Part shown: piece after piece, positions 18,841 through 34,124 of the stretch
Layout: every line of letters starts with the position of its first letter
Numbering within the stretch: position 1 is the first letter of the stretch
Virus record (IMG/VR): IMGVR_UViG_3300030060_002616
Span: 1 to 37,881 of that record
Length of the DNA stretch: 37,881 bases
Direction: 5' to 3' (one strand)
From: a virus
Program-made: the position numbers and the translations under genes
The notes under the pieces: generated by a model
What the model was told of the DNA's origin: nothing
What the model saw: only the letters and a program-made list of their open reading frames with translations
Database searches by the model: none

Positions 18841-18853
18841 TGTTTAATCCTCC

Positions 18854-19154: not shown

Positions 19155-19170
19155 CAATTATATTAAGATT

Positions 19171-19351: not shown

Positions 19352-19377
19352 TGGTTTTATTGGTTTTGTACAATCTT

Positions 19378-19406
19378 ATTATAATAAAATTAATCTAAGT
19401 TGTCAA
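19378..19406 (-). promoter_or_regulatory. Consensus early promoter (family of nine)
   Basis: TTGACA (19401-19406), 17 bases, TATAAT (19378-19383). It lies 7 bases from the T-run of the preceding terminator and drives the 19351 gene. Confidence 0.85.
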
Positions 19407-19412
19407 GCTACT

Positions 19413-19434
19413 AAAAAACCCCCTAAAAAGGGGG
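19413..19434 (-). terminator. Intrinsic terminator after the 19769 gene
   Basis: On the minus strand CCCCC-6-GGGGG (19419-19434) is followed by six T (19413-19418). It separates two cassettes. Confidence 0.85.
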
Positions 19435-19442
19435 CGATTAAT

Positions 19443-19769
19443 TTAGTCATAGCTGTCATATATTTTTGCTGTTCCATCCCAAGGTTCAATTATTCCCCAA
19501 TAATTTTCGAATGCATATTCCTGATCTTTCCAGTTTTTAACGCGTTTATGAAATACACCGCCTTTTGCAATATCAACGGGAATTTTACGACCCGCTTGGC
19601 CGTAGCCATCATGTTCGATTAATTGGCTTTCTATTTCTTGTAGCCATACAGTTTTGTTTGTTCTTCTCATAACTTTATAGAAAGTTGGAATTTGCATTGT
19701 GCAACCGCCGTTACAATATGCAATTTGCCCGACTTCGAATCTTGTTGGTTGAATTACTTTTGTTTCCAT
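19443..19769 (-). CDS. Conserved phage protein, function unknown
   Basis: A 108-residue protein. TFYKVMRRTNKTVWLQEI near residues 29-46 resembles a family of phage and mobile-element proteins with a YDQTNVDFYQVVKRT-type core. Two cysteines in YCNGGC could bind metal. It is beta-rich. I chose the ATG at 19769, directly after the C/A-rich leader; the longer frame from 19796 would start inside the -10 element. It has its own promoter and terminator. Confidence 0.72.
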   Translation of the reverse strand: METKVIQPTRFEVGQIAYCNGGCTMQIPTFYKVMRRTNKTVWLQEIESQLIEHDGYGQAGRKIPVDIAKGGVFHKRVKNWKDQEYAFENYWGIIEPWDGTAKIYDSYD

Positions 19770-19795
19770 TTGTTTGATTGGTTTGGTACATATCA

Positions 19796-19824
19796 ATTAT
19801 ATTATAATTAAATTATATTGTCAA
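19796..19824 (-). promoter_or_regulatory. Consensus early promoter (family of nine)
   Basis: TTGACA (19819-19824), 17 bases, TATAAT (19796-19801), driving the 19769 gene. Leader: ACCAAACCAATCAAACAA. Confidence 0.85.
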
Positions 19825-19885
19825 CAATCTTACTAAGATTAATTTTTATTATTTGCTAAACTTATAAAATCCTTACCTTTTCAAT

Positions 19886-20104
19886 ATGCCAGAACTTGTC
19901 GGGCAACGTTATCAACTAGGCCAACGCGTCAAAAAAGTTTCTTTCACTTCTTCAAATATTCCCAAGCGATACACAAGCGGAAAAATTATAGAAGTATTTA
20001 CAAAACAAAATAGTCTAGGTTTCAAGCATCAGTACTATAGGGTTCAATGGGATGACAAAAGAACATCAGAACACGCGCAACACACATTAAAGCCTTTGGA
20101 ATAA
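19886..20104 (+). CDS. Small SH3-like protein, function unknown
   Basis: A 72-residue plus-strand protein (MPELVGQRYQLGQRVKKVSF onward) ending YYRVQWDDKRTSEHAQHTL. The alternating strand pattern with GKIIEV suggests a small barrel. It is a lone plus-strand gene between minus-strand early genes, and its end overlaps the convergent 20323-20087 gene by 18 bases. The start has no Shine-Dalgarno. Confidence 0.65.
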   Translation: MPELVGQRYQLGQRVKKVSFTSSNIPKRYTSGKIIEVFTKQNSLGFKHQYYRVQWDDKRTSEHAQHTLKPLE

Positions 20105-20323
20105 TTCTTGCGGGATTCTATTTAATTGAATTGTTTTAAAATATCTAAATCTTTTGCGTTCAATATCTCTCAACATTTCAGCTTTACTAACTGTCTCTTT
20201 AAATTCTGTTATCCCATTAAATGTTCCTATACGAAAGAAAAGATCAGGCTGACCTTTTATTGGGAAGAAGTCAACCTGATATGAACCGCAAGGAGAAAGC
20301 AAAGAAGGGGTTTCAATAATCAT
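20087..20323 (-). CDS. Small protein, function unknown
   Basis: A 78-residue protein (MIIETPSLLSPCGSYQVDFF onward) with a charged middle (KAEMLRDIERKRFRYFKTI). The ATG shares its A with the upstream TGA (TGATG), so coupling is likely. No known motif. Confidence 0.65.
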   Translation of the reverse strand: MIIETPSLLSPCGSYQVDFFPIKGQPDLFFRIGTFNGITEFKETVSKAEMLRDIERKRFRYFKTIQLNRIPQELFQRL

Positions 20324-20640
20324 CAATAATGGCAAGGGCTATATTTGCAATTCCAATCTAATTCATCGCCTTCTTCCATCAACAAATCTTCAGGGATCAT
20401 GTAATTTGGATTGCTACAGAATTTATCGCCATCCCATCCTTCAACAACATTATCAAATTTTTTAATGCCCTCTAATTTCATCAAAAAATCAATTGCTTCA
20501 AGTCTTATTTCATAGTGAATGTTGCCATATTTCATTTCGACAAAGTATCCAAACTCATCACCTTTTTTGTATTCAAAGTAATAGTTTGTGTTGTTTAGAT
20601 TATCGCCGAATTTAATTGTGAAAGTTTTTTGAAATAACAT
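20323..20640 (-). CDS. Early protein, function unknown
   Basis: A 105-residue acidic protein (MLFQKTFTIKFGDNLNNTNY onward), beta-rich at the start, with YEIRLEAIDFLMKLEGIKKF in the middle and a Cys pair near the end (WNCKYSPCHY). It follows a consensus promoter and the leader GCAAACCAAACAAACCA. Confidence 0.72.
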   Translation of the reverse strand: MLFQKTFTIKFGDNLNNTNYYFEYKKGDEFGYFVEMKYGNIHYEIRLEAIDFLMKLEGIKKFDNVVEGWDGDKFCSNPNYMIPEDLLMEEGDELDWNCKYSPCHY

Positions 20641-20667
20641 TGGTTTGTTTGGTTTGCTTACAAATTA

Positions 20668-20696
20668 ATTATAATATAATTGATTAGTATTGTCAA
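20668..20696 (-). promoter_or_regulatory. Consensus early promoter (family of nine)
   Basis: TTGACA (20691-20696), 17 bases, TATAAT (20668-20673). Its -35 begins right after the stop codon of the small membrane protein gene at 20697. It drives 20640 and 20323. Confidence 0.85.
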
Positions 20697-20828
20697 CTAT
20701 CTTTTTATATCTTTTCTATATCTATTTATGTAATTATTCCCTTTTTGCAAAAAGAATTTATATAAAGCAAAAGAACAAATTAAATAAATAATAATTGCAA
20801 TCAAAGATGCAAAAAGTGCAAAAATCAT
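20697..20828 (-). CDS. Single-span membrane micro-protein
   Basis: A 43-residue protein with one membrane segment at residues 2-25 (IFALFASLIAIIIYLICSF) and a basic tail (NRYRKDIKR). Its ATG overlaps the upstream stop in ATGA, which supports expression. It lies last in the operon from the 22390 promoter. Such proteins often modify the host membrane or help lysis, but nothing here fixes the role. Confidence 0.62.
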   Translation of the reverse strand: MIFALFASLIAIIIYLICSFALYKFFLQKGNNYINRYRKDIKR

Positions 20829-21187
20829 CTTTTATTTTCCCAATCGTTATATTCTTCAAACAAATATCCATCAGAATTTGCACCCTCTGTAATAGCAGCA
20901 AGCGCCGCATCCCTAATATTCCCCTCAACCATTTCCGCCAGTATTTTTAAACTTCCCAAACTTTCCAGTTTTCTTTGTATCTGTGAAATTTTTTTTGATG
21001 CGTCTTCATAGCCATCTTGCAAATCTCTTGTAGCTTCCTGAAGTTCCTTATCAGCAATTATTTTTTCAGCGTGATTAACGCGATTCAAAGGAGCGCTTTT
21101 TAAATGTTCAGTTTGTCTTGCAATACGCCCACCAATAACCAAAGCCAATAATTGATTAATTGCTTTTAACTGTTCCTGATCTTTCAT
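20825..21187 (-). CDS. Helical early protein, function unknown
   Basis: A 120-residue, mostly helical protein (MKDQEQLKAINQLLALVIGG onward), with coiled-coil-like KKISQIQRKLESLGSLKI and an acidic C-terminus (YLFEEYNDWENKR). It overlaps the coiled-coil gene upstream by four bases and the membrane micro-protein downstream by four bases. Confidence 0.7.
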   Translation of the reverse strand: MKDQEQLKAINQLLALVIGGRIARQTEHLKSAPLNRVNHAEKIIADKELQEATRDLQDGYEDASKKISQIQRKLESLGSLKILAEMVEGNIRDAALAAITEGANSDGYLFEEYNDWENKR

Positions 21188-21924
21188 GAATCCTCCTTTT
21201 GTAAAATGTTTTTCAAGCCTGATTTAATCAAGCCTTCTTTATAAACTTCTGCCCTTTTATCAATTTCTTCTTGCATCGCATCTATCGTTTTTAATTTTTC
21301 TTGTAAGTCATATTTTTCTCTTTCTAATATATGTATTCGTTCCTTCATATCTTCAAGAATATTTTGGTTTTCGTCATGTTTATTTTTATAATGATTTAGT
21401 TGTAAAACGTGTTGCCGAAGTAACTTATCATAATTTTTTGATAAAGCTTCGCGACTATTTTTTATAGCCTTCTTATTTTCAACTTTTAGTAATTTAAGAC
21501 GTTTTTTATATTGCTCTCCTTGTGCTTTTAATCCTTTTTTTTCTCTATTTTTAAGCATTATATTTTCCTCTCTTGTATATTGGGCTAACAGTTGATAATG
21601 TCTTATATCTTTTTCTTTTACGACCCTGTGATACCATTTCACCGCCATTTCTTTCTGTTCTCCCTCTTCCATAGAAACAAACATACAATCAATTACATTT
21701 ACAGTTTGACTTCCAGTTTTAAAGTTATGAATCCATTTACTGAGAAAAAACTTAAATTTCTTTAACTGTAAATTAGTTAACTCTTCTCGAACTATTTCAA
21801 GATTACTTTCCCATTCCTGATATTTTTCTACATCATGATCTGGTTCTCTTAGTTTCTTTTCTAAGAACTTAATTCTCATCTTTAAATTAAATTCTTGATC
21901 TTTATAGTCATATCTTTTGTTCAC
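21184..21924 (-). CDS. Long coiled-coil early protein, function unknown
   Basis: A 246-residue protein, almost wholly charged coiled coil (LEKKLREPDHDVEKYQEWES near the start; ILEREKYDLQEKLKTIDAM near the end), interrupted at about 65-90 by a more ordered stretch (IHNFKTGSQTVNVIDCMF). The GTG at 21924 is chosen: it overlaps the stop of the small membrane gene (GTGA) and is preceded by GAGGTG. A farther ATG at 21966 would run back over that gene. No known family. Confidence 0.7.
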   Translation of the reverse strand: MNKRYDYKDQEFNLKMRIKFLEKKLREPDHDVEKYQEWESNLEIVREELTNLQLKKFKFFLSKWIHNFKTGSQTVNVIDCMFVSMEEGEQKEMAVKWYHRVVKEKDIRHYQLLAQYTREENIMLKNREKKGLKAQGEQYKKRLKLLKVENKKAIKNSREALSKNYDKLLRQHVLQLNHYKNKHDENQNILEDMKERIHILEREKYDLQEKLKTIDAMQEEIDKRAEVYKEGLIKSGLKNILQKEDS

Positions 21925-22052
21925 TTCAACACCTCGCAAGCCGCTTGTACATTCCCAACGCGGCAATCGTATTCAGTCATACCTGTCAAAGCATCGCTGA
22001 AGCCCAGATAAAATACACCTGAAGCTGCAAGCATCATTAGAAAATTGCTCAT
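21921..22052 (-). CDS. Small membrane or exported micro-protein
   Basis: A 43-residue protein (MSNFLMMLAASGVFYLGFSD onward) with a hydrophobic N-terminal segment at 3-18, then a polar part with two cysteines (DCRVGNVQAACEV). It has a good ribosome site (AAAGGAG) and an ATGA overlap with the gene before it. It could be a membrane-anchored or exported peptide with one disulfide. Confidence 0.65.
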   Translation of the reverse strand: MSNFLMMLAASGVFYLGFSDALTGMTEYDCRVGNVQAACEVLK

Positions 22053-22333
22053 TGTGCTAACTCCTTTGTTCTTCTTGTCCAATCATGTTCGCACCAAGGT
22101 TTGTCTGTTCCCATCCCTCTATATGGAATAACGTGCTTGGGCATATATTGAAGAATTGCAATCCACTCCTTCAATAAATCATCATTAGTTTGATTTTTAA
22201 AATCATAGTGATAATCTAAAATGCCTTTCTCTTTTAATATCTTTCCAACCTTCATATATGTCTTTGGATAAAAAGCGGCAATACCTCTTAATTCATGTCG
22301 AAATTCATGGTGGTGCCAATAAGCGTTTTTCAT
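22049..22333 (-). CDS. First gene of the 22333-20697 early operon, function unknown
   Basis: A 94-residue His/Tyr-rich protein (MKNAYWHHHEFRHELRGIAA onward) with several His that could bind metal (HHHEFRH, CEHDW), and DLLKEWIAILQYMPKHVIPY in the middle. It follows a consensus promoter and the leader AAACAAACCAATTAAACCAA. No family recognised. Confidence 0.72.
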   Translation of the reverse strand: MKNAYWHHHEFRHELRGIAAFYPKTYMKVGKILKEKGILDYHYDFKNQTNDDLLKEWIAILQYMPKHVIPYRGMGTDKPWCEHDWTRRTKELAQ

Positions 22334-22419: not shown

Positions 22420-23589
22420 ATGACTTCAATAAACGATTTACATAACGATCCTAAAAATGCTCGTAAACGTACTGATCGATCTGCAAAGCTTATAAAACAA
22501 AGTTTAGAACAATATGGTGCGGCAAGATCAATAGTAATTGACGAAAACAATCGCATCCTCGCAGGCAATGGAACAATCGCAGGGGCAAAAGCCGCAGGAA
22601 TTAAAAATTTAAAAATAATAGAAGCAAATGGCGATGAAATAATAGCGGTAAAAAGATCAAACCTTACAGAAGATCAAAAAGTGGGACTTGCAATAGCAGA
22701 TAACAGAACTGGTGACTTGTCAGAGTGGGATATAGATATGCTTGAACAACTATCAGATGAGCATGATTTAAACGATTTCTTTAATAAAAAAGAGCTTGAT
22801 GACATATTTTCTAAAAAAGAAGTTTTACCAACAGAAGGTTTAACAGACCCAGACGAAGTTCCAGAAGTTCCAGAAAAACCAATAACAAAAGAAGGTGATT
22901 TATATATTCTTGGTGATCACAGACTTTTATGTGGTGACTCTTTTATTATAAAAAATGTAGATTTTTTATTAAATGGAACAAAACCAGAGTTGCTTTTTAC
23001 TGACCCACCTTATGAATTACAGACAGAAGGCGGTGGAATTTTAAAAAAGAGCAATTCAATGAAACAAATAAAAACCAATAAAGTTGATAAATTTAACCCT
23101 CTTGATTTAATCCTTTTTGCTGAAACTAATATTTTTTTTCATAATAAACCTTTAATAAAACAATATATAGATTTAGCCGAAAAAAATAAAAAAAATTATG
23201 ATTTATGTTTCTACAAGAAGGAAAATATTGCACCTAATTATGGAGGTCATATGATGACTGACGTTGAATATATTGCATTAATAGGTAAACAAAATCCAAA
23301 CAAAGGTTTTCAGAAAGAGGATTATTCAAAAGTTTTTATTGGAAAAAAAGATTTTGATAATAAATTAAGTTATTCAAAACCTGTTGCTATCTGTGAAAAA
23401 TTTATAAAATTATATTCTAATTCAAATATTTTAGATTTATTTTCGGGTTCTGGTTCTTCATTAATTGCAGCCGAAAGATTAAATAAATTGTTTTTTGGAA
23501 TGGAAAAAAATCCTGTTTTCTGTGATGTAATAGTTAAAAGATGGGAGGATTTTACAGGCAACACAGCAAAACGTGTATCATCTAGTTAA
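22420..23589 (+). CDS. ParB-like domain fused to a DNA methyltransferase
   Basis: A 389-residue protein. Residues 1-110 are a ParB/sulfiredoxin-type domain (LHNDPKNARK, IVIDENNRILAGNGTIAGAK). Residues ~160-389 form a methyltransferase with motif IV TDPPYE (about 193-198) before motif I LDLFSGSGSS (about 337-346), the order of beta-class adenine-N6 or cytosine-N4 enzymes. The 200-330 stretch is divergent. This fusion is common beside phage terminase genes; it may protect phage DNA or mark it for packaging, but the target site is not known. It ends in TAATG, joining the small terminase. Confidence 0.88.
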   Translation: MTSINDLHNDPKNARKRTDRSAKLIKQSLEQYGAARSIVIDENNRILAGNGTIAGAKAAGIKNLKIIEANGDEIIAVKRSNLTEDQKVGLAIADNRTGDLSEWDIDMLEQLSDEHDLNDFFNKKELDDIFSKKEVLPTEGLTDPDEVPEVPEKPITKEGDLYILGDHRLLCGDSFIIKNVDFLLNGTKPELLFTDPPYELQTEGGGILKKSNSMKQIKTNKVDKFNPLDLILFAETNIFFHNKPLIKQYIDLAEKNKKNYDLCFYKKENIAPNYGGHMMTDVEYIALIGKQNPNKGFQKEDYSKVFIGKKDFDNKLSYSKPVAICEKFIKLYSNSNILDLFSGSGSSLIAAERLNKLFFGMEKNPVFCDVIVKRWEDFTGNTAKRVSSS

Positions 23590-23909
23590 TGGGTAAAAAA
23601 GGAACTCAAGCTGAAACTGTCGTAAGGTCACAGAAATTTGCTCGTATTATTGCAAATGGTGGCCGTAGATCAGACTGTGTTCGCTATGCCGCCGAAAATT
23701 GGGGGGTTGGGGAAAGAACTGTAGATAAGTATTTAAACATAGCCAGAGCCGAGTTAAAGAAGGATTGGGACATGGAACGACCTCAAATGATAGCTGATCT
23801 TTTGGCGCAATGTAGCACCTTACAGATGGAAGCTAGAAGGTCTGGTCAATATCATATTGCTTTAGGTGCTATAAATACAGCTGCAAAATTAGCACATCTT
23901 TGTTCATGA
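23589..23909 (+). CDS. terS: Terminase small subunit
   Basis: A 106-residue DNA-recognition subunit. Residues ~15-60 hold a helix-turn-helix (ANGGRRSDCVRYAAENWGVG followed by ERTVDKYLNIAR), then a helical oligomerisation part. It lies directly before the large terminase, overlapping it in ATGA. Confidence 0.82.
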   Translation: MGKKGTQAETVVRSQKFARIIANGGRRSDCVRYAAENWGVGERTVDKYLNIARAELKKDWDMERPQMIADLLAQCSTLQMEARRSGQYHIALGAINTAAKLAHLCS

Positions 23910-25246
23910 GTTTTTTAACTGATGTAAAGCAAGGTTATGTTTTACACCCTGAAAATTTTACAGATTCTTTAAATATAAATTTAACCTTACAAAGAATAAA
24001 AAAAGATTTACATATAGGACAGCTTAATTTTGTAAACGATACAAAAACTCAAATTTTAGGTTTATGTGCAGGCTATGGATCAGGCAAAACTAGATCATTA
24101 TTAGCAAAATGTTTTTACCTTTCTGTCTTAAATCAAGGCTTTACTGGAATAGTTTTAGAACCTACTCAACCTTTGGTTCGTGATCTCTTCGTGGCTGAAT
24201 TTGAAGAATTTTTGTTGAATTACGAAATTCCTTACAGTTTTAAATCTTCTCCTCTTCCCGATTTTATTCTTCATCTTCCCAAAGGTGACACCCGCATAAT
24301 GTGTCGAAGTTTTGAATCATGGCAAAGGATCATAGGAATTAACGCGGCTTGGTGCTGTGCGGACGAAATCGACACAGTTGCAAAATCTATTTGTGATAGA
24401 GCCTTTCCAAAAATACTTGGACGTCTTCGCGCGGGTAAGGTTCGTCAGTTCGCGGCGGCGTCCACTCCTGAAGGTTATAAATGGTTCTGGGAAACATTCG
24501 GCTCTGATGAAGCCAAAGATAAAACAGATAGAAAGTTAATAAGAATGAAAACAACAGACAATCCACATTTGCCCGCTGACTTTATTGATAGAATGAAATT
24601 GAACTTTGACCCGAATTTACTCAAGGCTTACCTTGAAGGTCAGTTCATATCTTTAACAACTGGCGCTGTCTTCGATCGCTTCGACAGAGAAAAACATATA
24701 ACAACAGACATCCCAAACTATTCAGACGAAATTATAAGACTTGGAATCGACTTTAATATTGGCAAGATGTCTTGCGTTTGCGCGGTAATTAAAGATAACA
24801 AGCTTTTTATTTTTGATGAGATTCGCGCACATGACACCGACCAACTGGCAAAAGAAATCAAATCAAGGTTTGTACACAACAGACTTTATGGATATCCTGA
24901 TTCTTCAGGCGGAGCAAGATCAACAAACGCTACGAAGACCGACATCCAGATTCTCGAAAGTTATGGAATATCCAATCAATCGGGCGCGTCTAATCCATCC
25001 ATTAAAGACAGCGTTAATAATGTTCAGCGCTTGTTATGCAATGGTAAAGAAGAAGTTAGTCTCTTTGTACATCCGCGTTGTAAAAATGTTATTGAATCGC
25101 TTGAACTTCAAAGTTATACGGAAGCGGGCGAACCAGAAAAAACAGGGTTAGATCATTTCTCTGATTGTGTTCGTTATCTTTGTTGGCGTTGCTTCAATCC
25201 CTTACATTTGGGGGCAGGGCGCAAAACAGGCATTAGAATATATTAA
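23906..25246 (+). CDS. terL: Terminase large subunit (packaging ATPase and nuclease)
   Basis: A 446-residue DNA-packaging motor. The ATPase has Walker A AGYGSGKTRS at about 54-63 and Walker B AAWCCADEID at about 147-156. The nuclease domain (280-446) has acidic residues in LGIDFNIGKM, FDEIRA and LDHFSDCVRY near its end, fitting the RNase H-like metal site. I chose the ATG at 23906, which overlaps the small subunit stop; a TTG two codons earlier is unlikely. The packaging type (pac or cos) cannot be told from this alone. Confidence 0.94.
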   Translation: MSFLTDVKQGYVLHPENFTDSLNINLTLQRIKKDLHIGQLNFVNDTKTQILGLCAGYGSGKTRSLLAKCFYLSVLNQGFTGIVLEPTQPLVRDLFVAEFEEFLLNYEIPYSFKSSPLPDFILHLPKGDTRIMCRSFESWQRIIGINAAWCCADEIDTVAKSICDRAFPKILGRLRAGKVRQFAAASTPEGYKWFWETFGSDEAKDKTDRKLIRMKTTDNPHLPADFIDRMKLNFDPNLLKAYLEGQFISLTTGAVFDRFDREKHITTDIPNYSDEIIRLGIDFNIGKMSCVCAVIKDNKLFIFDEIRAHDTDQLAKEIKSRFVHNRLYGYPDSSGGARSTNATKTDIQILESYGISNQSGASNPSIKDSVNNVQRLLCNGKEEVSLFVHPRCKNVIESLELQSYTEAGEPEKTGLDHFSDCVRYLCWRCFNPLHLGAGRKTGIRIY

Positions 25247-25283: not shown

Positions 25284-26708
25284 GTGTATTCATCTTTTAA
25301 TCATTACGACAGAGAGAGATCAAGTAAAGCCGTAGAAGTACAAGACCCAAGCAACGCTTATGTAAATATGGAGCCGAATTGGATATTGATTGAAGATTTA
25401 ATTACAGGTACTTATGGAATAAGAAAAAGACATCGAAAATACCTCCCCCAGATGCCGCGCGAACAGGACGAGAGCTACGATAACAGGCTCGCCACTTCGG
25501 TTCTAGCACCTCTATATGTGAGAATCGAGAGATTGCTTGCGGGTATGCTTACACGCAAACCTGTTCGACTAAACGAGGTATCAGAACGAGTTACGGAAGA
25601 TTTGTTCGATGTTGATTTGATGGGTAACGATCTTACTAGTTGGACTTATGAGACAGCAAAAATAATGTTGAGATATGGTCATGTCGGCGTTCTAGTAGAT
25701 GCCCCATCTAATTCTACAGGACGCCCATATTGGATTACATATTCACCGCGCGAGATTCTCGGATGGCGTACAGAAACGATTGATGGTCAACAGAAGCTAA
25801 CACAATTAAGACTTCTTGAAAGAGTTACAGAACCAGATGGCGATTATGGACAGAAAGAAGTTGAACAGGTTCGACTACTAACGCCGGGAGCCTTTGAAGT
25901 TCACAGGAAAAGCCGTCAGGGAAAATATGTCAAAGTTGATGAAGGAACAACTTCTCTTGATTACATACCTTTTGCAATTGCATATTCAAATAAAGTTGGC
26001 TTTTTAGAATCACGCCCACCGATGCAAGACATAGCAGAATTAAATTTATTGCATTATCAAAAAACATCTGACTTTGATAATCAATTAAGAATATCTTCTG
26101 TTCCTTTGCTTTGTTTATTTGGTTTCCCGCAGGCGTCCGAAGAAGTAAGCGCGGGGCCGGGTGAAGCGATTGCCTTTCCTGAAGGTGCAAGGGCTGAATT
26201 TGTAGAAATAAAAGGGCAATCTTTTCAATATCAACGCGACAGAATAAAAAATATTGAAGATCAAATTAATACTTTGGCACTTGCCGCGATCCTTGGTCAG
26301 AAACTTGTAGCAGAAACAGCACAATCACAGGAAATACAAAGAAGTCAAGGAGATTCAACACTTAAAATAGTTGCTCAACAATTGCAAGACATGATTGATA
26401 ATTGTCTTGTTTTTCATGCTAATTATTTAAATATTTCAGAAATTGGAAACGCTTTTGTTAATCGTGATTTCTTAGGTCAAAAACTAGCACCGCAAGAAAT
26501 ACAAGCAATGCAGGGTTTATGGTCTTCTGGTGCTATATCTCAGGAAACATTACTAAAACAGTTGGCAGAAGGGGAAATTCTTGGTGATGATTTCGATGTC
26601 GATATGGAAATCGAATCGACTCAAATGGGTGATATGCAAGAAACAGATGAACCAACACCCGAAGCTGAACCAGATGAACCAACAGAAGACCCAGAAGATG
26701 ACGATTAA
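25284..26708 (+). CDS. Portal protein (DUF4055-like)
   Basis: A 474-residue head portal through which DNA enters. Family marks include YVNMEPNWILIEDLITGTYG near 27-46, RKYLPQMPRE, YDNRLATSVLAPLYVRIERL and the long helix FQYQRDRIKNIEDQINTLAL with AETAQSQEIQRSQGDS downstream. The C-terminus is very acidic (EPDEPTEDPEDDD). It starts with GTG preceded by AGGGG. It lies between the terminase and the MuF-type gene, as usual. Confidence 0.88.
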   Translation: MYSSFNHYDRERSSKAVEVQDPSNAYVNMEPNWILIEDLITGTYGIRKRHRKYLPQMPREQDESYDNRLATSVLAPLYVRIERLLAGMLTRKPVRLNEVSERVTEDLFDVDLMGNDLTSWTYETAKIMLRYGHVGVLVDAPSNSTGRPYWITYSPREILGWRTETIDGQQKLTQLRLLERVTEPDGDYGQKEVEQVRLLTPGAFEVHRKSRQGKYVKVDEGTTSLDYIPFAIAYSNKVGFLESRPPMQDIAELNLLHYQKTSDFDNQLRISSVPLLCLFGFPQASEEVSAGPGEAIAFPEGARAEFVEIKGQSFQYQRDRIKNIEDQINTLALAAILGQKLVAETAQSQEIQRSQGDSTLKIVAQQLQDMIDNCLVFHANYLNISEIGNAFVNRDFLGQKLAPQEIQAMQGLWSSGAISQETLLKQLAEGEILGDDFDVDMEIESTQMGDMQETDEPTPEAEPDEPTEDPEDDD

Positions 26709-28849
26709 TGACACAAACGCCGATACGTGTTCCGTCTGATGTTTCCAAGCTTGGGGCATCTATCCCTTACCCTGAATTAATACCAGAAGAATATTTTCGT
26801 AATAGTTTAGATTTAAATAGATTTTCTAATAAAATATCGCGTGAAATCGTCCAATCTTATAATCGAATAATAATCAGGGCAGTTGATAAATTAGAAGCCA
26901 TAGAGCGCCTTCCAAGAGCTAATCAGCCTAAGTATACCGCTGCGCGTTTGCGTTCTTTGTTAGTTCAGACAAAAGAAAGTTTAAAAAAATGGGATGCCAA
27001 ATCAACAAAAAATATGCAGCTTGTTTCTGAAGCTGTTGCAAAATTACAAACAGAATTTGCAACAGATCAATTAGAAAAAGCATTGCCCGCAGGCATTAGA
27101 TCTTCAATAAGAACTGTCGAGGTTACACCCGCATTTGCAAAGGCTGTTGTTAATACAAGCGCTTCACAATTAAATGTTCAGATATTAAGCGACTCATTAA
27201 ATACTATTGCAGGCGGGGCAGGCGTTAAATTTTCTTTAACTGCAAAAGAAGGTGAATTAATAGAATTACCAAATGGCGAATCAATCAGAAAATCTTTTCG
27301 AGGGATAACAAATAAAAGTGCTGAAAAATTAGGGCGTGAGATTCGCGATGGATTATTGGCAGGCGATACGACAAAACAAATCAGATCAAGATTAATAGGT
27401 TCATTAAGGTTTAATTCAAAAGGTAATGTAAGACAAATTGCAGCGGCAGGCGGTAACGCTACAAAAACCGCTAATCATCAAGTTATGACCATTGTCAGAA
27501 CTTCTTTAAATCAAGTAAGCAATGTCGCAGCGCAACAGGTTTACAAAGCAAACCCAAATGCAACCAAAAAATATAGATACTTGGCAACCTTGGACAGCAG
27601 AACCAGTTCCCGTTGTCGTTTGTTAGATCAACAAGTGTTTGAATATGGAAAAGGGCCGGAGCCGCCACAGCATTTTAATTGTCGATCAAGAACAGTTGCC
27701 GAAATAGATTATGAGAATTTAAGCCGCGTTTTCGGTCGTAAGATAGAAGCGCCCAGACGCAGAGGTTTCAGGCCATCAGAAAGCGGTCTAGTACCCGCAG
27801 GCGAAAGTTATGGAACTTGGCTTGCTAAACAATCGCCCGCAGTAAAGGCGAAAGCACTTGGCGCAAGTAAAGTTAGATTTTTTGATAGATTATCTAAAAA
27901 ATTTGGCGGCGATCAAGCTATAAGAAAATTTGCTTCGATTGATGGTTCTGAAAAAACTTTGGCGCAACTTCAGGCAGCTTATGGAAAAAATGCAAATAAA
28001 ATTAAAATAGTTCCTGATGTTGTAAGAGAAAGAAAAAGCGCACCTTATACATGGCAAAGATATTCTGACGGATCTCTTGCGAAGAAGGCAGAGCCGTCAA
28101 ACCTTACAAAGTGGACGCCAGAACGTCAAAAATTACACGATCAAATCGTTGAAGATATCATTGCAGAAAATAATCCAAGAGCGCAGAAGAATCCAATTTT
28201 TTATATGACAGGCGGCGGATCAGCTTCAGGTAAATCAATCATGTTGAAAAAGTCACCATTAAGAAAAGGAACTGTTGTTATTGATTCTGATGAAATTAAA
28301 AAACGTTTACCAGAATTTAAGGCAATGCAGGCAAAGGGCGGAAAGATAGCAGAAGCGGCAGCGGGATATGTTCACGAAGAATCAAGTTGGATCAGTAAAC
28401 GATTAATGAGAGAGTGCGCCCAAAGGCGTTATCACACAATGCTTGATGGAACTGGTGATGGAAGTTTAAAAAGTTTATCAGGCAAAATTAAAATGATGAC
28501 TGATCGAGGAATGACAGTTAGGGCTAAATATGCAACAGCGGAAATTGCAACAGCACTTGAAAGAAACTATCAAAGATATATAAAAACAAAGCGATTGGTT
28601 CCGCCTACTTATGTTCGAAATGTTCATAGGGAAGTTTCCAAAGTAGTTCCGCAGGCTATTAGGGCAAATGTTTTTGATGACTTTGAACTTTACGACATGA
28701 ACAAAACAGGCGAAGCAATTAAGGTCGCTACTTATACAAAGAAAGATGGTTTAAAAATATTGAATAACGATTTATATGGAAACTTCTTGGCGAAGGCCGA
28801 TCAACCCGACAGTTTGTTTACTAAATGGACAGATAAGAAAAAGCGGTGA
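26708..28849 (+). CDS. MuF-type head protein fused to a zeta-toxin-like kinase
   Basis: A 713-residue protein. Residues ~170-340 carry the SPP1 gp7/Mu F head-morphogenesis domain (VRTSLNQVSNVAAQQVY, then TLDSRTSSRCRLLDQ and PPQHFNCRSRTVAEI). Residues ~470-700 form a P-loop kinase like zeta toxin: Walker A GGGSASGKS (about 502-510), DSDEIKKRLPEF, and HEESSWISKRLMRECAQ. Zeta toxins phosphorylate UDP-N-acetylglucosamine and poison cell wall synthesis. Here the domain would be packaged in the virion and delivered with DNA. No antitoxin of the epsilon type is recognised nearby. Confidence 0.88.
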   Translation: MTQTPIRVPSDVSKLGASIPYPELIPEEYFRNSLDLNRFSNKISREIVQSYNRIIIRAVDKLEAIERLPRANQPKYTAARLRSLLVQTKESLKKWDAKSTKNMQLVSEAVAKLQTEFATDQLEKALPAGIRSSIRTVEVTPAFAKAVVNTSASQLNVQILSDSLNTIAGGAGVKFSLTAKEGELIELPNGESIRKSFRGITNKSAEKLGREIRDGLLAGDTTKQIRSRLIGSLRFNSKGNVRQIAAAGGNATKTANHQVMTIVRTSLNQVSNVAAQQVYKANPNATKKYRYLATLDSRTSSRCRLLDQQVFEYGKGPEPPQHFNCRSRTVAEIDYENLSRVFGRKIEAPRRRGFRPSESGLVPAGESYGTWLAKQSPAVKAKALGASKVRFFDRLSKKFGGDQAIRKFASIDGSEKTLAQLQAAYGKNANKIKIVPDVVRERKSAPYTWQRYSDGSLAKKAEPSNLTKWTPERQKLHDQIVEDIIAENNPRAQKNPIFYMTGGGSASGKSIMLKKSPLRKGTVVIDSDEIKKRLPEFKAMQAKGGKIAEAAAGYVHEESSWISKRLMRECAQRRYHTMLDGTGDGSLKSLSGKIKMMTDRGMTVRAKYATAEIATALERNYQRYIKTKRLVPPTYVRNVHREVSKVVPQAIRANVFDDFELYDMNKTGEAIKVATYTKKDGLKILNNDLYGNFLAKADQPDSLFTKWTDKKKR

Positions 28850-28879: not shown

Positions 28880-28937
28880 AAGATTGATGGGGTTCGCCTC
28901 AGCACCTAGAAAACCAAACAAACCAACAGGAGGATTT

Positions 28938-29153
28938 ATGAAAAAGCCTAAATCTTGGGCGGAACTTCTTAAGCATCCAGACATACATTCAATTGATGAT
29001 GGACGTAAAGAATTTCCAGATTCACCAGATATGGAAATTTACATTTCTATTAAGGATGAAATTGAAAACCCAGTAACAGGCGAAAAAGGTGGCGGCTTTT
29101 ATGTCGGTTCCTTCAAAGACGCTTTGGATCATTTCCGATGTGATTGGAATTAA
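28938..29153 (+). CDS. Small early-type protein, function unknown
   Basis: A 71-residue protein (MKKPKSWAELLKHPDIHSID onward) with GGGFYVGSFKDALDHFRCDW at the end. The ATG at 28938 is preceded by AGGAGG and by the C/A-rich leader, which fixes the start. The longer frame would begin beside the -10 element. No known motif. Confidence 0.72.
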   Translation: MKKPKSWAELLKHPDIHSIDDGRKEFPDSPDMEIYISIKDEIENPVTGEKGGGFYVGSFKDALDHFRCDWN

Positions 29154-29158
29154 TAATC

Positions 29159-29172
29159 GCCCCTTCGGGGGC
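29159..29172 (+). promoter_or_regulatory. Intercistronic UUCG hairpin
   Basis: GCCCC-TTCG-GGGGC is a very stable short hairpin with the UUCG tetraloop, between two genes. No T-run follows, so it is more likely an RNA-stability or processing element than a terminator. Confidence 0.5.
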
Positions 29173-29202
29173 TTCAAACAAATCAAACAAAAAGGAGGAA
29201 CA

Positions 29203-29415
29203 ATGTTAAGTTTTGAAAACTGGCTCGAAACCAGACAAGGAAAATTTTTCCAAGAAAAAATTGGAAAAGAAAAATGGCATCTATCAGAAGATGAACTTAA
29301 GAAAATTTATGTAATTTTTAAAAAGCATCAATTTGCAAGACTAACAGGTGTAGCAATTGGCGAATGTTGGCATCTTCAAAATAAGGATGGTTCGACAGGT
29401 ATTCCGAACGATTAA
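29203..29415 (+). CDS. Small early-type protein, function unknown
   Basis: A 70-residue protein (MLSFENWLETRQGKFFQEKI onward), helical, with IYVIFKKHQFARLTGVAIG. The ATG at 29203 follows AAGGAGGA and a C/A-rich leader. Upstream in-frame starts would run back over the previous gene. The gene ends just before a strong terminator. Confidence 0.72.
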   Translation: MLSFENWLETRQGKFFQEKIGKEKWHLSEDELKKIYVIFKKHQFARLTGVAIGECWHLQNKDGSTGIPND

Positions 29416-29422
29416 AAAACAG

Positions 29423-29444
29423 CCCCCAGAAATGGGGGTTTTTT
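29423..29444 (+). terminator. Intrinsic terminator
   Basis: CCCCC-6-GGGGG followed by six T. It ends the first early-type unit and is followed six bases later by the next consensus promoter. Confidence 0.88.
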
Positions 29445-29449
29445 ATTAC

Positions 29450-29478
29450 TTGACAAATAAGATTAATCTTATTATAAT
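29450..29478 (+). promoter_or_regulatory. Consensus early promoter with palindromic spacer
   Basis: TTGACA (29450-29455), 17 bases, TATAAT (29473-29478). The spacer is filled by a perfect 18-bp palindrome (AATAAGATT / AATCTTATT) at about 29457-29474. It drives 29505 and 29761. Confidence 0.85.
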
Positions 29479-29504
29479 AAAATTGTACGAAACCAAACAA
29501 ACCA

Positions 29505-29768
29505 ATGACACATCCGCAAAAAGAATTTATTGATTATGTTTTTGACTTTTATGGTAAAAATGGAATCTATGACATGGGCGCAACAAAAGATCAGATTGCA
29601 ACAGCTACAAATGCCAGATTAAAAAATCTTAAGTATGCAAAATTGCCTTTTGATGGCGATACTATCGACAGAGAAATTGTAAGAGACATACTTATCGAAA
29701 AATTTGCTCTTAAATTTCCTCAAGCAAATTACACTTTGACAGAAAACGGAGTTCAAAAAAATGTTTAG
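29505..29768 (+). CDS. Small early-type protein, function unknown
   Basis: An 87-residue protein (MTHPQKEFIDYVFDFYGKNG onward), mostly helical. It follows the leader CGAAACCAAACAAACCA without a Shine-Dalgarno. It overlaps the next gene by eight bases. Not recognised. Confidence 0.72.
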   Translation: MTHPQKEFIDYVFDFYGKNGIYDMGATKDQIATATNARLKNLKYAKLPFDGDTIDREIVRDILIEKFALKFPQANYTLTENGVQKNV

Positions 29769-30221: not shown

Positions 30222-30395
30222 ATGTTCAAAATCGCAACTATCGACCAAATCGCAAACGGCATCATCGACAAAGCTATTCTCGGCGAAACATTCACAAGAA
30301 CTCAAATCGTTGAAGTAATTACTTTCAACTGCTACGCTCAACACGTTGCTGAAAAAGTTGCTGATGCTGTAATGATTGAACTAGCAAAAATCTAA
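30222..30395 (+). CDS. Small helical protein in its own cassette
   Basis: A 57-residue protein (MFKIATIDQIANGIIDKAIL onward), helical, with two Cys-free amphipathic stretches flanking FNCYAQHV. It has its own consensus promoter, the leader AAACAAACCAATCAAACCA, and ends one base before the GGGG arm of a terminator-promoter overlap. It is too short for size-limited gene calls. Confidence 0.68.
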   Translation: MFKIATIDQIANGIIDKAILGETFTRTQIVEVITFNCYAQHVAEKVADAVMIELAKI

Positions 30396-30415
30396 GGGGC
30401 TTGACAACCCCTTTT
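30396..30415 (+). terminator. Terminator hairpin with the next -35 box in its loop
   Basis: GGGG (30396-30399) and CCCC (30408-30411) pair around the loop CTTGACAA, followed by TTTT. The loop contains the TTGACA -35 element of the next promoter. Confidence 0.65.
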
Positions 30416-30429
30416 AATTTTATTATAAT
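30401..30429 (+). promoter_or_regulatory. Consensus early promoter overlapping a terminator
   Basis: TTGACA (30401-30406), 17 bases, TATAAT (30424-30429), driving the 30458 gene. Confidence 0.85.
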
Positions 30430-30457
30430 AAGATTGTTAAACAAACCAACTAAACAA

Positions 30458-30910
30458 ATGACAACTACAACAACACAAACAGAACAAGTTCAAAAGTTAG
30501 CTGAACAGCTTTGCGAAACTCTCACAGAAGCTAGAGCGGGATGGATGAAAAAGATTCGTTTTGATAAAGAAGACGGAAACTACAGCGATCTTTATTTAGA
30601 TGAAAATGGCAACTACAAGCCAGAAGATCATCCTGATTATTTCACTTTCATCATCGGTAAAAGATATTTGAAAGTTGTTGTTATGGAATGGAAAGACGAT
30701 GCACAATATGGCAGAATCAACGCCGCCCCTGCGGGATATGTTGCCGCTAGTGTTCACGCTTTCATCGACAAAAAGACAGGTGATGTTTTTAAGGCCGCAG
30801 CTTGGAGCAGCCCCGCGAAAGGCGTAAGATATAACATCCTTACCCAGACAGAAACAGTTTTACAACGCGCAGGCAATGACGGAGGATTTGGATATTATTT
30901 ATATCGCTAA
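30458..30910 (+). CDS. Conserved phage protein, function unknown
   Basis: A 150-residue protein. The N-terminus is Thr-rich; the core has IIGKRYLKVVVMEW, then VHAFIDKKTGDVFKAAAWSS and GVRYNIL, a pattern I recall from many phage hypotheticals where a short strand-rich domain ends in a GDVYKPAxWxxPAKG-type motif. The ATG at 30458 follows the C/A-rich leader; the frame from 30401 would start on the -35 box. A strong terminator follows. Confidence 0.78.
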   Translation: MTTTTTQTEQVQKLAEQLCETLTEARAGWMKKIRFDKEDGNYSDLYLDENGNYKPEDHPDYFTFIIGKRYLKVVVMEWKDDAQYGRINAAPAGYVAASVHAFIDKKTGDVFKAAAWSSPAKGVRYNILTQTETVLQRAGNDGGFGYYLYR

Positions 30911-30930
30911 TCCTTTTTTGAATTTTACAG

Positions 30931-30950
30931 CCCCCGAAAGGGGGTTTTTT
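30931..30950 (+). terminator. Intrinsic terminator
   Basis: CCCCC-GAAA-GGGGG with six T. It closes the early-type block on the plus strand and faces the end of the convergent minus-strand gene. Confidence 0.9.
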
Positions 30951-30955: not shown

Positions 30956-31135
30956 CTATATCTGTGGAAATTCTGGCGTGTAATCTACATACCAACCTTC
31001 AAGGTTTTTTTCTTTTGCTATTATTTCCGCGTTCTCAATATCTTGAATTATTCCCTGTCTAAACTTTTTCGCTTCTGCTGATTCGTTAGGTTCTGGCGCG
31101 ATGTTTAAAACAACTTCATTCATTATTGTTTGCAT
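30956..31135 (-). CDS. Small protein, function unknown
   Basis: A 59-residue acidic protein from the ATG at 31135 (MQTIMNEVVLNIAPEPNESA onward) with EGWYVDYTPEFPQI at the end. The ATG at 31123 is an alternative with AAGGA upstream. It is the only minus-strand gene in the right-hand half of the genome. Confidence 0.6.
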   Translation of the reverse strand: MQTIMNEVVLNIAPEPNESAEAKKFRQGIIQDIENAEIIAKEKNLEGWYVDYTPEFPQI

Positions 31136-31183
31136 CCTTTTTGCAGATAACAATGTTTTTTACCTCATTCAAGGTTATTCTAG

Positions 31184-31198
31184 TATAAGTTACTTATA
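31184..31198. promoter_or_regulatory. Perfect dyad between divergent genes
   Basis: TATAAGT-T-ACTTATA, a 7-1-7 dyad, lies 11 bases before the 31209 ATG and upstream of the divergent 31135 gene. Each arm resembles a -10 box for one direction. Operator or back-to-back promoters. Confidence 0.4.
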
Positions 31199-31208
31199 AA
31201 TGTAAGTC

Positions 31209-31283
31209 ATGCCCAAGGGAATCGGTTACGGCTCATCTATGAAGCCTAAAAAGAAAAAGAAAAAAAAAGGAGGTAAAAAGTAA
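31209..31283 (+). CDS. Lys-rich micro-protein
   Basis: A 24-residue protein (MPKGIGYGSSMKPKKKKKKK onward) of a type I recall from marine phages, where short MPKGxGYG-Lys proteins stand beside head genes. Its stop and the next start form TAATG. It is likely DNA- or RNA-binding or packaged with DNA, by charge alone. Confidence 0.6.
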   Translation: MPKGIGYGSSMKPKKKKKKKGGKK

Positions 31284-32284: not shown

Positions 32285-33004
32285 ATGTCAGAAGAACAAA
32301 ATCAGGAGCTTGCGGCGCCTGAACAAACAAACGCCAAAGAACAAGAACTTCTAAACAGAATAGAAGCATTAGATAGAAAAAATAGAGAATTATTGGACGA
32401 AAAGAAAAAATTTCAAAAGGTCGATAAAACACTTCAAAGCCTTCCTGAAGGTGTAGATGTTCAAGCCTTAATTGATTTTAAAAATAATGCTGAACAGGCA
32501 AATCTTGAAAGACAAGGAAAATACACCGAAGCAAAAAATCAACTTGAAGAACAGTTTCGCGAAAGAAGCGCAGCAAAGGACAAGGAGATTGAAGAGCTTA
32601 AGGCAAGGATAAGCGAACTGGAATTGGTTTCACCCGCTATACAGGCGCTTGCAGAGGTCACACATAATCCAAAACTTGTCTTTGATAACTTTTTAAAAGG
32701 TAGAACAGAGTTAAGGGATGGAAAACCTGTCGTTATTGATGGTTATGATCGTCACAATGTTACAGAATGGGCAAAAAATTCTTTGGCAAAAGATCACGCT
32801 TATTTGTTAAAAAGTCAACCCGCACAGGGAACAGGCGCACCGATCGCCAGAACAGGCGGAACCCCTGCAACTTCAGGAGAGTTTGACCCTGAGTTAATAC
32901 GAAGATTAGCAAATGGCGAACACACTGTTGAACACGTAATATTTAAAAGATACGGCCGCGAAGGTTGGTTAAAGGCAAAAGAGATCGCAAAGAATTACAA
33001 ATAA
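32285..33004 (+). CDS. Capsid scaffold protein
   Basis: A 239-residue, Glu/Lys-rich, mostly coiled-coil protein (EQELLNRIEALDRKNRELLD near 20-40; SAAKDKEIEELKARISELEL near 95-115) with a C-terminal helical part (LIRRLANGEHTVEHVIFKRY). Such a profile directly before the major capsid gene is typical of scaffolds that shape the procapsid and then leave. There is no protease domain here. Confidence 0.82.
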   Translation: MSEEQNQELAAPEQTNAKEQELLNRIEALDRKNRELLDEKKKFQKVDKTLQSLPEGVDVQALIDFKNNAEQANLERQGKYTEAKNQLEEQFRERSAAKDKEIEELKARISELELVSPAIQALAEVTHNPKLVFDNFLKGRTELRDGKPVVIDGYDRHNVTEWAKNSLAKDHAYLLKSQPAQGTGAPIARTGGTPATSGEFDPELIRRLANGEHTVEHVIFKRYGREGWLKAKEIAKNYK

Positions 33005-33016
33005 CAAAAATCAGGG

Positions 33017-33030
33017 TAATATATAAATAA
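33017..33030 (+). promoter_or_regulatory. T4-late-type octamer before the capsid gene
   Basis: TAATATATAAATAA includes TATAAATA at 33022-33029, the T4 late promoter consensus. The capsid ATG is 72 bases downstream. A -10-only promoter or chance in AT-rich DNA are alternatives. Confidence 0.45.
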
Positions 33031-33101
33031 CTATTCAAAGCTGCGCTGAGAATACCAAGGGCTGCGCCCATACTGCTAAACAATTTTTATAGGAGTTATC
33101 T

Positions 33102-34124
33102 ATGGCGGTTTTACGCTCAGATATTATAATTCCTGAAATTTTCACGCCATACATTATTGAACAGACAACCGCAAGAGATGCTTTCTTGGCGAGCGGTGTG
33201 GTTCAACCTTTGGCGGAGCTTAACGCTACTGAGGGGGGAGATTTCGTAAAAATCCCATTTTACTCAGCGAATCTTTCAGGAGACTTTGAAGTACTTTCTG
33301 ATTCTTCATCACTAACACCCGGCAAAATTTCTACCGATCAACAAATCGGAGTAATTTTACATAGAGGTCGCGCATTTGAAGCAAGAGATCTTGCAGCACT
33401 TGCGGCGGGTTCTGATCCTATGGCTGCAATCGGTCAAAAGATCGGCGCTTACATTGCAAACCAGAGACAGAAGGATTTATTCTCTTGTCTTTCAGGTGTA
33501 TTTGGTTCTATTAATGCAAACGACAGCAACTCAGCTTTCTTTGGCTTAACTATTGATTCAGAATCAGGGGACAGCCCAACACCTTTATCACCTCGTCATA
33601 TTGCAAGAGCAAGAGCGATTCTTGGAGATCAGGGCGAAAAGCTTACAGCTTTAGCAATGCACTCAAACGTTTTTTATGACTTAGTTGAAAGAAATGCGAT
33701 TGATCGTATTTATGACAACAATGGTGATGCTGATACAGCCGCAACTTCTGGTACAACAGCAAATGCGTTTGGTAGCCCTTCAGTTCCTACATTTATGGGA
33801 CTTCGAGTTATAGTAAGCGATGACGTGCCAACCACAGGAAGCGGAAGTTCCACAGAGTACTCCACGTTTGCATTTTCAGCGGGAGCTTTAGCATCGGGCG
33901 AGCAGGCAGGGATTCAAACTGAAACTGACAGAGACATTCTTGCAAAGTCTGATGCGATGTCTATTGATTTGCATTACACATATCACCCTGTCGGTTCTAA
34001 GTGGGCTGTAACAACTACAAACCCAACAAGAGCGCAACTCGAAACTGTAGGAAACTGGTCGAAAGTTTTTGAGACAAAGAACATCGGAATCGTAAGGATT
34101 ACGAATGTAAGTAACCAAGATTAA
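33102..34124 (+). CDS. Major capsid protein
   Basis: A 340-residue protein. The N-terminal part (RSDIIIPEIFTPYIIEQTTA) and middle (GGDFVKIPFYSANLSGDFEV, LHRGRAFEARDLAALAAGSD) match capsid proteins of siphoviruses with a separate scaffold. A long helix (IGQKIGAYIANQRQKDLFSC) and LTALAMHSNVFYDL fit the HK97-like fold expected for this position. It has a good ribosome site (AGGAG). Confidence 0.9.
   Translation: MAVLRSDIIIPEIFTPYIIEQTTARDAFLASGVVQPLAELNATEGGDFVKIPFYSANLSGDFEVLSDSSSLTPGKISTDQQIGVILHRGRAFEARDLAALAAGSDPMAAIGQKIGAYIANQRQKDLFSCLSGVFGSINANDSNSAFFGLTIDSESGDSPTPLSPRHIARARAILGDQGEKLTALAMHSNVFYDLVERNAIDRIYDNNGDADTAATSGTTANAFGSPSVPTFMGLRVIVSDDVPTTGSGSSTEYSTFAFSAGALASGEQAGIQTETDRDILAKSDAMSIDLHYTYHPVGSKWAVTTTNPTRAQLETVGNWSKVFETKNIGIVRITNVSNQD

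What the first reader, a model, noticed from the sequence alone, without database searches (positions are those of the whole stretch)
26708..28849. Zeta-toxin-like kinase fused to a MuF head protein
The C-terminal ~230 residues keep the Walker A GGGSASGKS and the following DSDE motif. MuF-linked toxin domains are known in phages of Firmicutes, but a zeta-type kinase on the MuF protein of a probably marine phage points to a virion-delivered effector acting on cell-wall precursors, or to a role in superinfection exclusion.
Basis: partly seen in the sequence, partly recalled or inferred. Interest (0 to 1): 0.7.

Follow-up and report, generated by a model that had tools for sequence, protein, structure and literature searches.

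The report
Phage head protein carrying swappable kinase
A marine cyanobacterial virus carries, fused to a protein of its head, an intact-looking zeta-type kinase that is swapped between related viruses together with a small partner gene which looks like its antidote, so the virus probably injects the enzyme into cells along with its DNA.

Summary
ORF 26708-28849 (713 aa) is an intact MuF head protein fused to a zeta-type kinase, with the P-loop Lys, catalytic Asp and both phosphate-binding Arg conserved, a confident zeta-fold model (pLDDT 88.5) and strong purifying selection. The window is an essentially complete integrase-less cyano-siphophage.

The C-terminus is a swappable cassette. Phages with 96-100% identical MuF cores carry a zeta kinase or a putative metallopeptidase; about 60 relatives have nothing there. 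Beyond the finding I found a 65-aa gene on the other strand (30956-31153) that is present in 25/25 zeta-bearing loci tested and 0/43 zeta-less ones, occurs even beside zeta domains on unrelated MuF proteins (P-SS2 type), and moves with the kinase as one ~1.1-kb unit. It is the best candidate for a cognate antitoxin. Its P-SS2 homologue, and the P-SS2 MuF-zeta protein, were both detected in purified virions (published mass spectrometry).

Not supported: a cell-wall substrate. Three of five known UDP-GlcNAc contacts are changed, and the fold matches the NAD kinase AvrRxo1 equally well. MuF toxins and MuF-zeta fusions are already described; new here are the partner family, the cassette exchange in apparently virulent cyanophages, and the virion link.

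The parts
26708..28849 (+). MuF-zeta fusion protein, 713 aa
   Evidence: intact ORF; Pfam Phage_Mu_F and Zeta_toxin; close IMG/VR relatives
26708..27997 (+). conserved MuF head-morphogenesis core, residues 1-430
   Evidence: 43-51% identical to whole MuF proteins of S-H1 and KBS-S-2A and to the N-terminal part of the MED4-184 MuF protein; Pfam Phage_Mu_F at 208-329
28031..28801 (+). zeta-type P-loop kinase domain, residues 442-698 (the swapped effector)
   Evidence: Pfam; profile match to zeta 1gvn 7e-19 and PezT 5e-16; AF2 pLDDT 88.5, VIA Z about 20 to AvrRxo1, zeta and PezT
28211..28237 (+). Walker A GGGSASGKS, residues 502-510, K509 = zeta K46
   Evidence: Lys invariant in 24 aligned sequences
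28280..28303 (+). IDSDEIKK, D528 = zeta D67 catalytic base
   Evidence: invariant in 24 of 24; mapped by profile alignment to 1gvn
28373..28387 (+). HEESS motif, residues 556-560
   Evidence: His, second Glu and both Ser invariant in 19 sequences; H-x-E-S-S also appears in the AvrRxo1 alignment
28445..28459 (+). DGTGD, residues 580-584, T582 = zeta T118, D584 at the zeta R120 position
28574..28594 (+). R623 and R629 = zeta R158 and R171
   Evidence: 24/24 and 22/24 Arg
30956..31153 (-). 65-aa partner gene, candidate cognate antitoxin or immunity protein
   Evidence: 25/25 zeta-bearing and 0/43 zeta-less loci; homologue beside P-SS2-type zeta proteins; coding by dN/dS; co-transferred with zeta
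31182..31210 (-). promoter-like site upstream of the partner gene (weak, 9 of 12 matches)
   Evidence: consensus match only
30929..30946 (+). terminator-like hairpin just beyond the partner gene's stop; called on the + strand, where it would end the rightward transcript
   Evidence: consensus match only
25284..26708 (+). portal protein
   Evidence: PHROG 145, 6e-106
23900..25246 (+). terminase large subunit
   Evidence: PHROG 2
32285..34124 (+). head scaffold (32285-33004) and major head protein (33102-34124)
   Evidence: PHROGs 206 and 247

Best explanation
This is a phage-borne polymorphic effector system. The MuF core places the protein in the head at the portal; its C-terminal zeta-type kinase rides in the virion, enters the next cell with the DNA, and phosphorylates a small nucleotide-type metabolite there, poisoning or redirecting metabolism. 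The 65-aa gene on the opposite strand makes a cognate inhibitor (antitoxin or immunity protein) that protects the producing cell or keeps the kinase off in the particle, and probably neutralises kinase from the phage's own kind. Effector domain and small gene are exchanged as one cassette. Shown here: intact fusion, conserved catalytic residues, fold, selection, cassette exchange, strict association and co-transfer of the partner. Shown by others for the homologue P-SS2: both proteins detected in purified virions. Inferred: injection, kinase activity, substrate, inhibition by the partner, biological benefit.
For: Intact fusion and families. Catalytic residues K509, D528, T582, R623, R629 conserved. 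Fold: AF2 pLDDT 88.5, VIA Z 20.8 AvrRxo1, 20.3 zeta, 19.4 PezT. Purifying selection. Swap: MuF cores of L139, L039, L040, L042 are 96-100% identical but bear zeta or unrelated tails; at DNA level L139 and L039 match at 91.5% up to L139:3976, do not match over 3977-5099, and match again at 95.7% from 5100. Unit transfer: L138 and L139 are about 67-68% alike in most alignable stretches but 83% exactly over 3992-5021, which is zeta plus partner. Partner 25/25 versus 0/43, tracks zeta (partial r 0.95), not MuF (-0.72). P-SS2 virion mass spectrometry: ORF030 (MuF-zeta) 96.5 peptides, ORF033 (partner homologue) 2.5 (PMC2784084). Other MuF toxins with adjacent immunity proteins are experimentally shown (Apk2, Bxa; PMC11699363).
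Against: No toxicity, kinase or inhibition was tested. P-SS2 peptide positions are not given in the main text, so presence of the zeta part itself in virions is inferred. In the window the partner lies about 2.1 kb from the kinase gene, not adjacent. The partner's predicted fold (two helices) matches no solved antitoxin. The 25/25 versus 0/43 count is not corrected for relatedness, although it includes several distinct MuF backbones.
Confidence: 0.63

Rival explanations
1. The kinase phosphorylates UDP-GlcNAc and weakens the wall of the infected cell to help DNA entry or lysis.
For: Zeta/PezT are the best profile matches (7e-19 and 5e-16); the catalytic base D67 and the phosphate-binding T118 are conserved; PMC5512222 proposes this for MuF-fused zeta kinases.
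Against: E100, R120 and T128, which contact UDP-GlcNAc in zeta, are K, D and K. AvrRxo1 lacks the same set and does not use UDP-GlcNAc (PMC5491322). Other zeta toxins do use UDP-sugars in another way (PMC5923241), so it is not excluded.
Confidence: 0.3
2. The kinase phosphorylates NAD or another nucleotide cofactor, as the structural neighbour AvrRxo1 does, and the small partner is its inhibitor or chaperone, like AvrRxo2/Arc1.
For: Top structural match by VIA Z (20.8, tied with zeta at 20.3); shared W-x-P-E-R-x-x-L-H and H-x-E-S-S motifs; same logic of effector plus small inhibitor (PMC5087710).
Against: H-x-E-S-S also occurs in stand-alone phage zeta proteins L156 and L158, so it may be generic; profile similarity to AvrRxo1 is weaker than to zeta (3e-8 versus 7e-19).
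Confidence: 0.25
3. Weapon between phages: the injected kinase disables co-infecting or resident rivals, and the early-expressed partner confers immunity on the phage's own kind (superinfection exclusion by toxin and immunity).
For: Swapping cassettes with dedicated small genes; the partner lies on the opposite strand with a possible promoter of its own; no integrase in window, G001, G002 or G003, so lysogen protection is an unlikely reason for an immunity gene.
Against: No direct evidence; the timing of partner expression is unknown; its P-SS2 homologue is itself in the virion, which fits a bound inhibitor as well.
Confidence: 0.25
4. Toxin-antitoxin maintenance module that stabilises a lysogenic or plasmid-like phage, as proposed for zeta genes in oxygen-minimum-zone viruses (PMC8940887).
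For: A toxin-like kinase with a candidate antitoxin.
Against: The kinase is fused to a late head protein between portal and scaffold genes, and no integrase or resolvase family was found.
Confidence: 0.05
5. The domain is a catalytically inert structural appendage of the head.
For: Nothing specific; about 60 related MuF proteins lack it, so it is dispensable for assembly.
Against: Catalytic residues invariant and dN/dS as low as in MuF; swapped with unrelated putative enzymes.
Confidence: 0.04

Closest known systems
MuF polymorphic toxins (Zhang 2012; Jamet 2017; Apk2 and Bxa)
   Same: N-terminal MuF domain, late-gene location, variable C-terminal effector, small cognate gene
   Different: Zeta is not mentioned in the main text of Jamet 2017; Jamet finds MuF toxins only in temperate phages, here no integrase; the partner gene is on the opposite strand and of a family with no Pfam or PHROG match
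MuF-fused zeta-toxin-like kinases among polyvalent proteins (Iyer 2017, PMC5512222)
   Same: Same domain pair, reported in one sentence
   Different: That text names no cyanophage, and the passage on these kinases describes no partner gene, cassette exchange or virion data
Cyanophage P-SS2 ORF030 and ORF033
   Same: Zeta domain 47% identical; homologous small partner 3' of it; both detected in virions
   Different: Unrelated MuF backbone, 1,500-aa protein with a further C-terminal region, integrase present (PMC2784084)
Epsilon/zeta and PezAT toxin-antitoxin systems
   Same: Kinase fold and catalytic residues; small inhibitor-like partner
   Different: UDP-GlcNAc contacts changed; partner not recognisably epsilon; carried on a head protein
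AvrRxo1 with its inhibitor AvrRxo2/Arc1
   Same: Fold (Z 20.8), motifs, small co-encoded partner
   Different: Type III effector, not phage-borne; about 20% identity; substrate of ours unknown

Membership tests
MuF polymorphic toxins | N-terminal Phage_Mu_F domain | tested here: met
   Pfam 1.3e-11, above cut-off
MuF polymorphic toxins | gene lies in the head module by portal and terminase | tested here: met
   TerL 23900, portal 25284, MuF 26708, scaffold 32285, MCP 33102
MuF polymorphic toxins | variable C-terminal domain on a conserved N-terminus | tested here: met
   96-100% identical cores with zeta or other tails; sharp DNA breakpoints
MuF polymorphic toxins | cognate immunity gene | tested here: inconclusive
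   Strict association and co-transfer of a 65-aa gene; neutralisation not testable here
MuF polymorphic toxins | carried by temperate phage (association, not definition) | tested here: inconclusive
   No integrase or resolvase family in window, G001, G002, G003; other modes of lysogeny not excluded
MuF polymorphic toxins | C-terminal domain is toxic | not testable with these tools
   needs expression
zeta/PezT UDP-GlcNAc kinases | P-loop Lys, catalytic Asp, two Arg | tested here: met
   K509, D528, R623, R629
zeta/PezT UDP-GlcNAc kinases | zeta fold | tested here: met
   VIA Z 20.3, rmsd 3.8 over 232 residues to 1gvn
zeta/PezT UDP-GlcNAc kinases | UDP-GlcNAc contacts D67, T118, E100, R120, T128 | tested here: not met
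   Only D67 and T118 kept; E100K, R120D, T128K by profile alignment
zeta/PezT UDP-GlcNAc kinases | epsilon or PezA antitoxin partner | tested here: inconclusive
   Partner matches no Pfam family and no fold; small helical protein
AvrRxo1-type NAD 3'-kinases | fold and shared motifs | tested here: met
   Z 20.8, rmsd 3.6 over 255 residues; motif alignment
AvrRxo1-type NAD 3'-kinases | NAD 3'-phosphorylation | not testable with these tools
   needs enzyme assay
Virion-injected (polyvalent) effectors | present in the virion | tested here: inconclusive
   Published for homologue P-SS2 ORF030, 96.5 peptides (PMC2784084); not for this phage

The most novel reading that the evidence does not exclude
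Apparently virulent marine cyanophages carry exchangeable head-packaged effector and antidote cassettes, used in conflict between phages or as a self/non-self check at infection; the zeta member modifies a metabolite other than UDP-GlcNAc and is held off by a new family of two-helix antitoxins that travels in the particle.
Probability: 0.25. Interest if true: 0.85.

Novelty: new variant of a known kind. Interest (0 to 1): 0.64.

Why it matters
It extends MuF polymorphic effectors to ocean cyanophages without an integrase, whereas the published survey found MuF toxins only in temperate phages. It supplies a candidate antitoxin family that predicts which phages carry the kinase, and a cultured model (P-SS2) in which both proteins were already seen in virions. 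The open question of what MuF toxins are for becomes testable. It also warns that 'zeta toxin' genes counted as toxin-antitoxin auxiliary genes in marine viromes may be head-protein effectors.

Tried and rejected
Assembly or frameshift artefact: rejected, many separate contigs. Inactive domain: rejected, residues and dN/dS. Immediately downstream genes 28884-29768 as immunity: rejected, not conserved even in the 98-99% identical relative L010. DUF7717 gene 30401-30910 as immunity: less likely; missing from zeta-bearing L135-L138 loci and G008, divergent in G002. Partner as epsilon or Arc1 homologue: no Pfam, PHROG, PDB-sequence or fold match; the fold absence is inconclusive for so small a helical model. 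Bacterial chromosomal origin of the cassette: genome-contig scans gave nothing, then one phage contig; Myxococcota scans gave only that contig and a few weaker hits without the partner; plasmids gave nothing. Partner beside more distant phage zeta proteins (L155-L162, L167, L168): none found, so the pairing is specific to one zeta sub-clade.
Full report
Observation. The window is an IMG/VR virus record of 37,881 bases whose two ends overlap by 178 bases with one mismatch, and a close relative (portal 98% identical) runs continuously across that junction, so it is an essentially complete, circularly permuted genome. ORF 26708-28849 is intact, 713 aa, with Phage_Mu_F at 208-329 and Zeta_toxin at 490-666. 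It sits between portal (25284) and scaffold/major head protein (32285/33102). Nearest cultured relatives of the N-terminus are Synechococcus phages S-H1 and KBS-S-2A (47-48%) and Prochlorococcus phages P-HS2/MED4-184 (41%); the zeta part is nearest cyanophage P-SS2 (47%). The phage is therefore a marine cyano-siphophage (inference from relatives; 36% GC).

The kinase domain. A profile of 19 relatives matches zeta (1gvn, 7e-19), PezT (5e-16) and AvrRxo1 (3e-8) in the PDB. The AF2 model of the domain has pLDDT 88.5; VIA-align gives Z 20.8 (rmsd 3.6, 255 residues) to AvrRxo1, 20.3 (3.8, 232) to zeta and 19.4 (4.5, 224) to PezT, well above the next group at 13. Mapping on zeta and counting over 24 sequences: K46, D67 and R158 are kept in 24/24, T118 and R171 in 22/24. 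The UDP-GlcNAc contacts E100, R120 and T128 named in PMC3062530 are K564, D584 and K593 here and are hardly ever kept in the set. AvrRxo1, which also lacks these contacts, is an NAD 3'-kinase that does not use UDP-GlcNAc (PMC5491322; PMC5087710). A gonococcal zeta acts on several UDP-sugars at another hydroxyl (PMC5923241).

Selection. Across 31 relatives with distinct sequences, pairwise dN/dS against the window is about 0.01-0.17 in the zeta domain and 0.03-0.17 in the MuF core where synonymous sites are not saturated: both halves are maintained.

Cassette exchange. Of the relatives fetched with the MuF core, about 60 end 1-5 residues after the core. Others carry zeta, a tail with HExxH similar to MED4-184 (weak anthrax-lethal-factor-type Pfam matches below cut-off), or a second tail type. 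L139, L039, L040 and L042 have 96-100% identical MuF cores but different tails. At DNA level L139 and L039 align at 91.5% to L139:3976, do not align over 3977-5099, and align again at 95.7% from 5100. The exchanged 1.1 kb holds the effector domain and one small gene. L135-L139 show the converse: MuF 47-55% but zeta about 77% identical to the window.

The partner gene. Comparing zeta-bearing with zeta-less genomes singled out a 65-aa ORF on the minus strand at 30956-31153. Its homologues lie beside the zeta-MuF genes of this sub-clade, including P-SS2-type proteins on unrelated MuF backbones (L144, L146-L149, P-SS2; E 1e-21 to 1e-31) and L151, L152, L154 (E 3e-6 to 5e-4; L150 weakly, 0.015), on either strand. 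In loci with this MuF core and at least 2.5 kb downstream it is present in 25/25 with zeta and 0/43 without (Fisher 4e-19, not corrected for relatedness). A search started from the partner alone returned 38 loci; 28 hold at least part of the zeta domain, and in the other ten the held DNA ends within about 2.9 kb on the side where zeta would lie. It is protein-coding (dN/dS 0 to 0.2 in all but one pair of near-identical sequences). Its divergence follows zeta (partial r 0.95), not MuF (-0.72). L138 and L139 share 53% in MuF, 90% in zeta and 89% in the partner; their DNA is about 67-68% alike in most alignable stretches but 83% over exactly 3992-5021, zeta plus partner. The partner has no Pfam, PHROG or PDB relative and is predicted as two helices (pLDDT 88). 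The MED4-184 and L039 metallopeptidase-like tails have their own small downstream genes, 52% identical to each other. In the window 2.1 kb of variable small genes lie between kinase gene and partner; in L139 the two genes abut tail to tail.

Virion evidence. P-SS2 ORF030 (17648-22147, 1,500 aa), called 'major capsid protein' in PMC2784084, is the MuF-zeta protein. It averaged 96.5 peptides in purified virions, second only to the tape measure protein (102) among the table rows I read. Only 29 fully cleaved tryptic peptides of 6-35 residues lie in its first 384 residues, 99 in the whole protein, so if the counts are distinct peptides they probably reach beyond the MuF part; if they are spectra this does not follow. 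P-SS2 ORF033 (22567-22767), the partner homologue, was also detected (2.5 peptides). The positions match GenBank GQ334450.

Lifestyle. Integrase and resolvase families are absent from the window and from G001, G002 and G003, all zeta-bearing. A survey found MuF toxins only in temperate phages (PMC5576092). KBS2A, a relative, was also reported without integration genes (PMC3751600 abstract).

Mechanism. Most likely: packaging on the MuF core, ejection with DNA, metabolite phosphorylation in the recipient cell, and restraint by the partner in the producer and perhaps in the particle. Packaging is supported by the homologue; ejection, activity, substrate and inhibition are inferred. The analogy with Apk2 and Bxa, whose adjacent small proteins neutralise the toxin (PMC11699363), is the basis for reading the partner as immunity or antitoxin. 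Whether the benefit is host takeover or exclusion of rival phages is open.

Known versus new. MuF polymorphic toxins (PMC3482391, PMC5576092) and MuF-fused zeta kinases (one sentence in PMC5512222) are known. I found no report, in the open-access papers searched, of the partner family, the effector and partner cassette exchange in cyanophages, or the P-SS2 reinterpretation.

Noticed in passing
L039:3001-5289, L040:3001-5295, L042:1030-3327, L004:3995-6280: Other effector tails on the same kind of MuF core: putative metallopeptidases (HExxH in L004, L039, L040), followed by small genes of their own (52% identical between L004 and L039); likely further effector and immunity pairs.
   Followed up: partly
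L144:2756-7975 (also L192): A 1,740-aa P-SS2-type MuF protein with two tandem zeta domains; a contig of the same length (PBTG01000079.1, 74,693 bases) is binned in a Myxococcales MAG, probably phage contamination.
   Followed up: no
L149:2750-8002: 1,751-aa protein with MuF, zeta, Rho_N/SAP-like and ADP-ribosyltransferase-like matches: a large polyvalent head protein.
   Followed up: no
L029:3149-7648 versus L001:3858-8358: P-SS2 ORF030 is labelled 'major capsid protein' in the paper's table but is a MuF-zeta protein; GU071090 annotates the same region as two overlapping ORFs (923 + 598 aa), so one of the two records likely has a frameshift error.
   Followed up: partly
L006:3995-6281: In MED4-117 the MuF and metallopeptidase protein is annotated as two overlapping ORFs, where the very similar MED4-184 has one; likely a sequencing frameshift.
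   Followed up: no
window 30394-30429: A perfect sigma-70 consensus (TTGACA, 17 nt, TATAAT) overlaps a hairpin and the TTG start of ORF 30401-30910 (DUF7717), so the real start codon is probably further downstream.
   Followed up: no
window 30401-30910; L112:3211-4117: DUF7717 (PF24835) gene between kinase and partner; present as two divergent tandem copies in L112.
   Followed up: partly
window 22420-23589: Protein with ParB-like N-terminal part and DNA methyltransferase C-terminal part (PHROGs 620 and 498, Pfam N6_N4_Mtase) just before the terminase genes.
   Followed up: no
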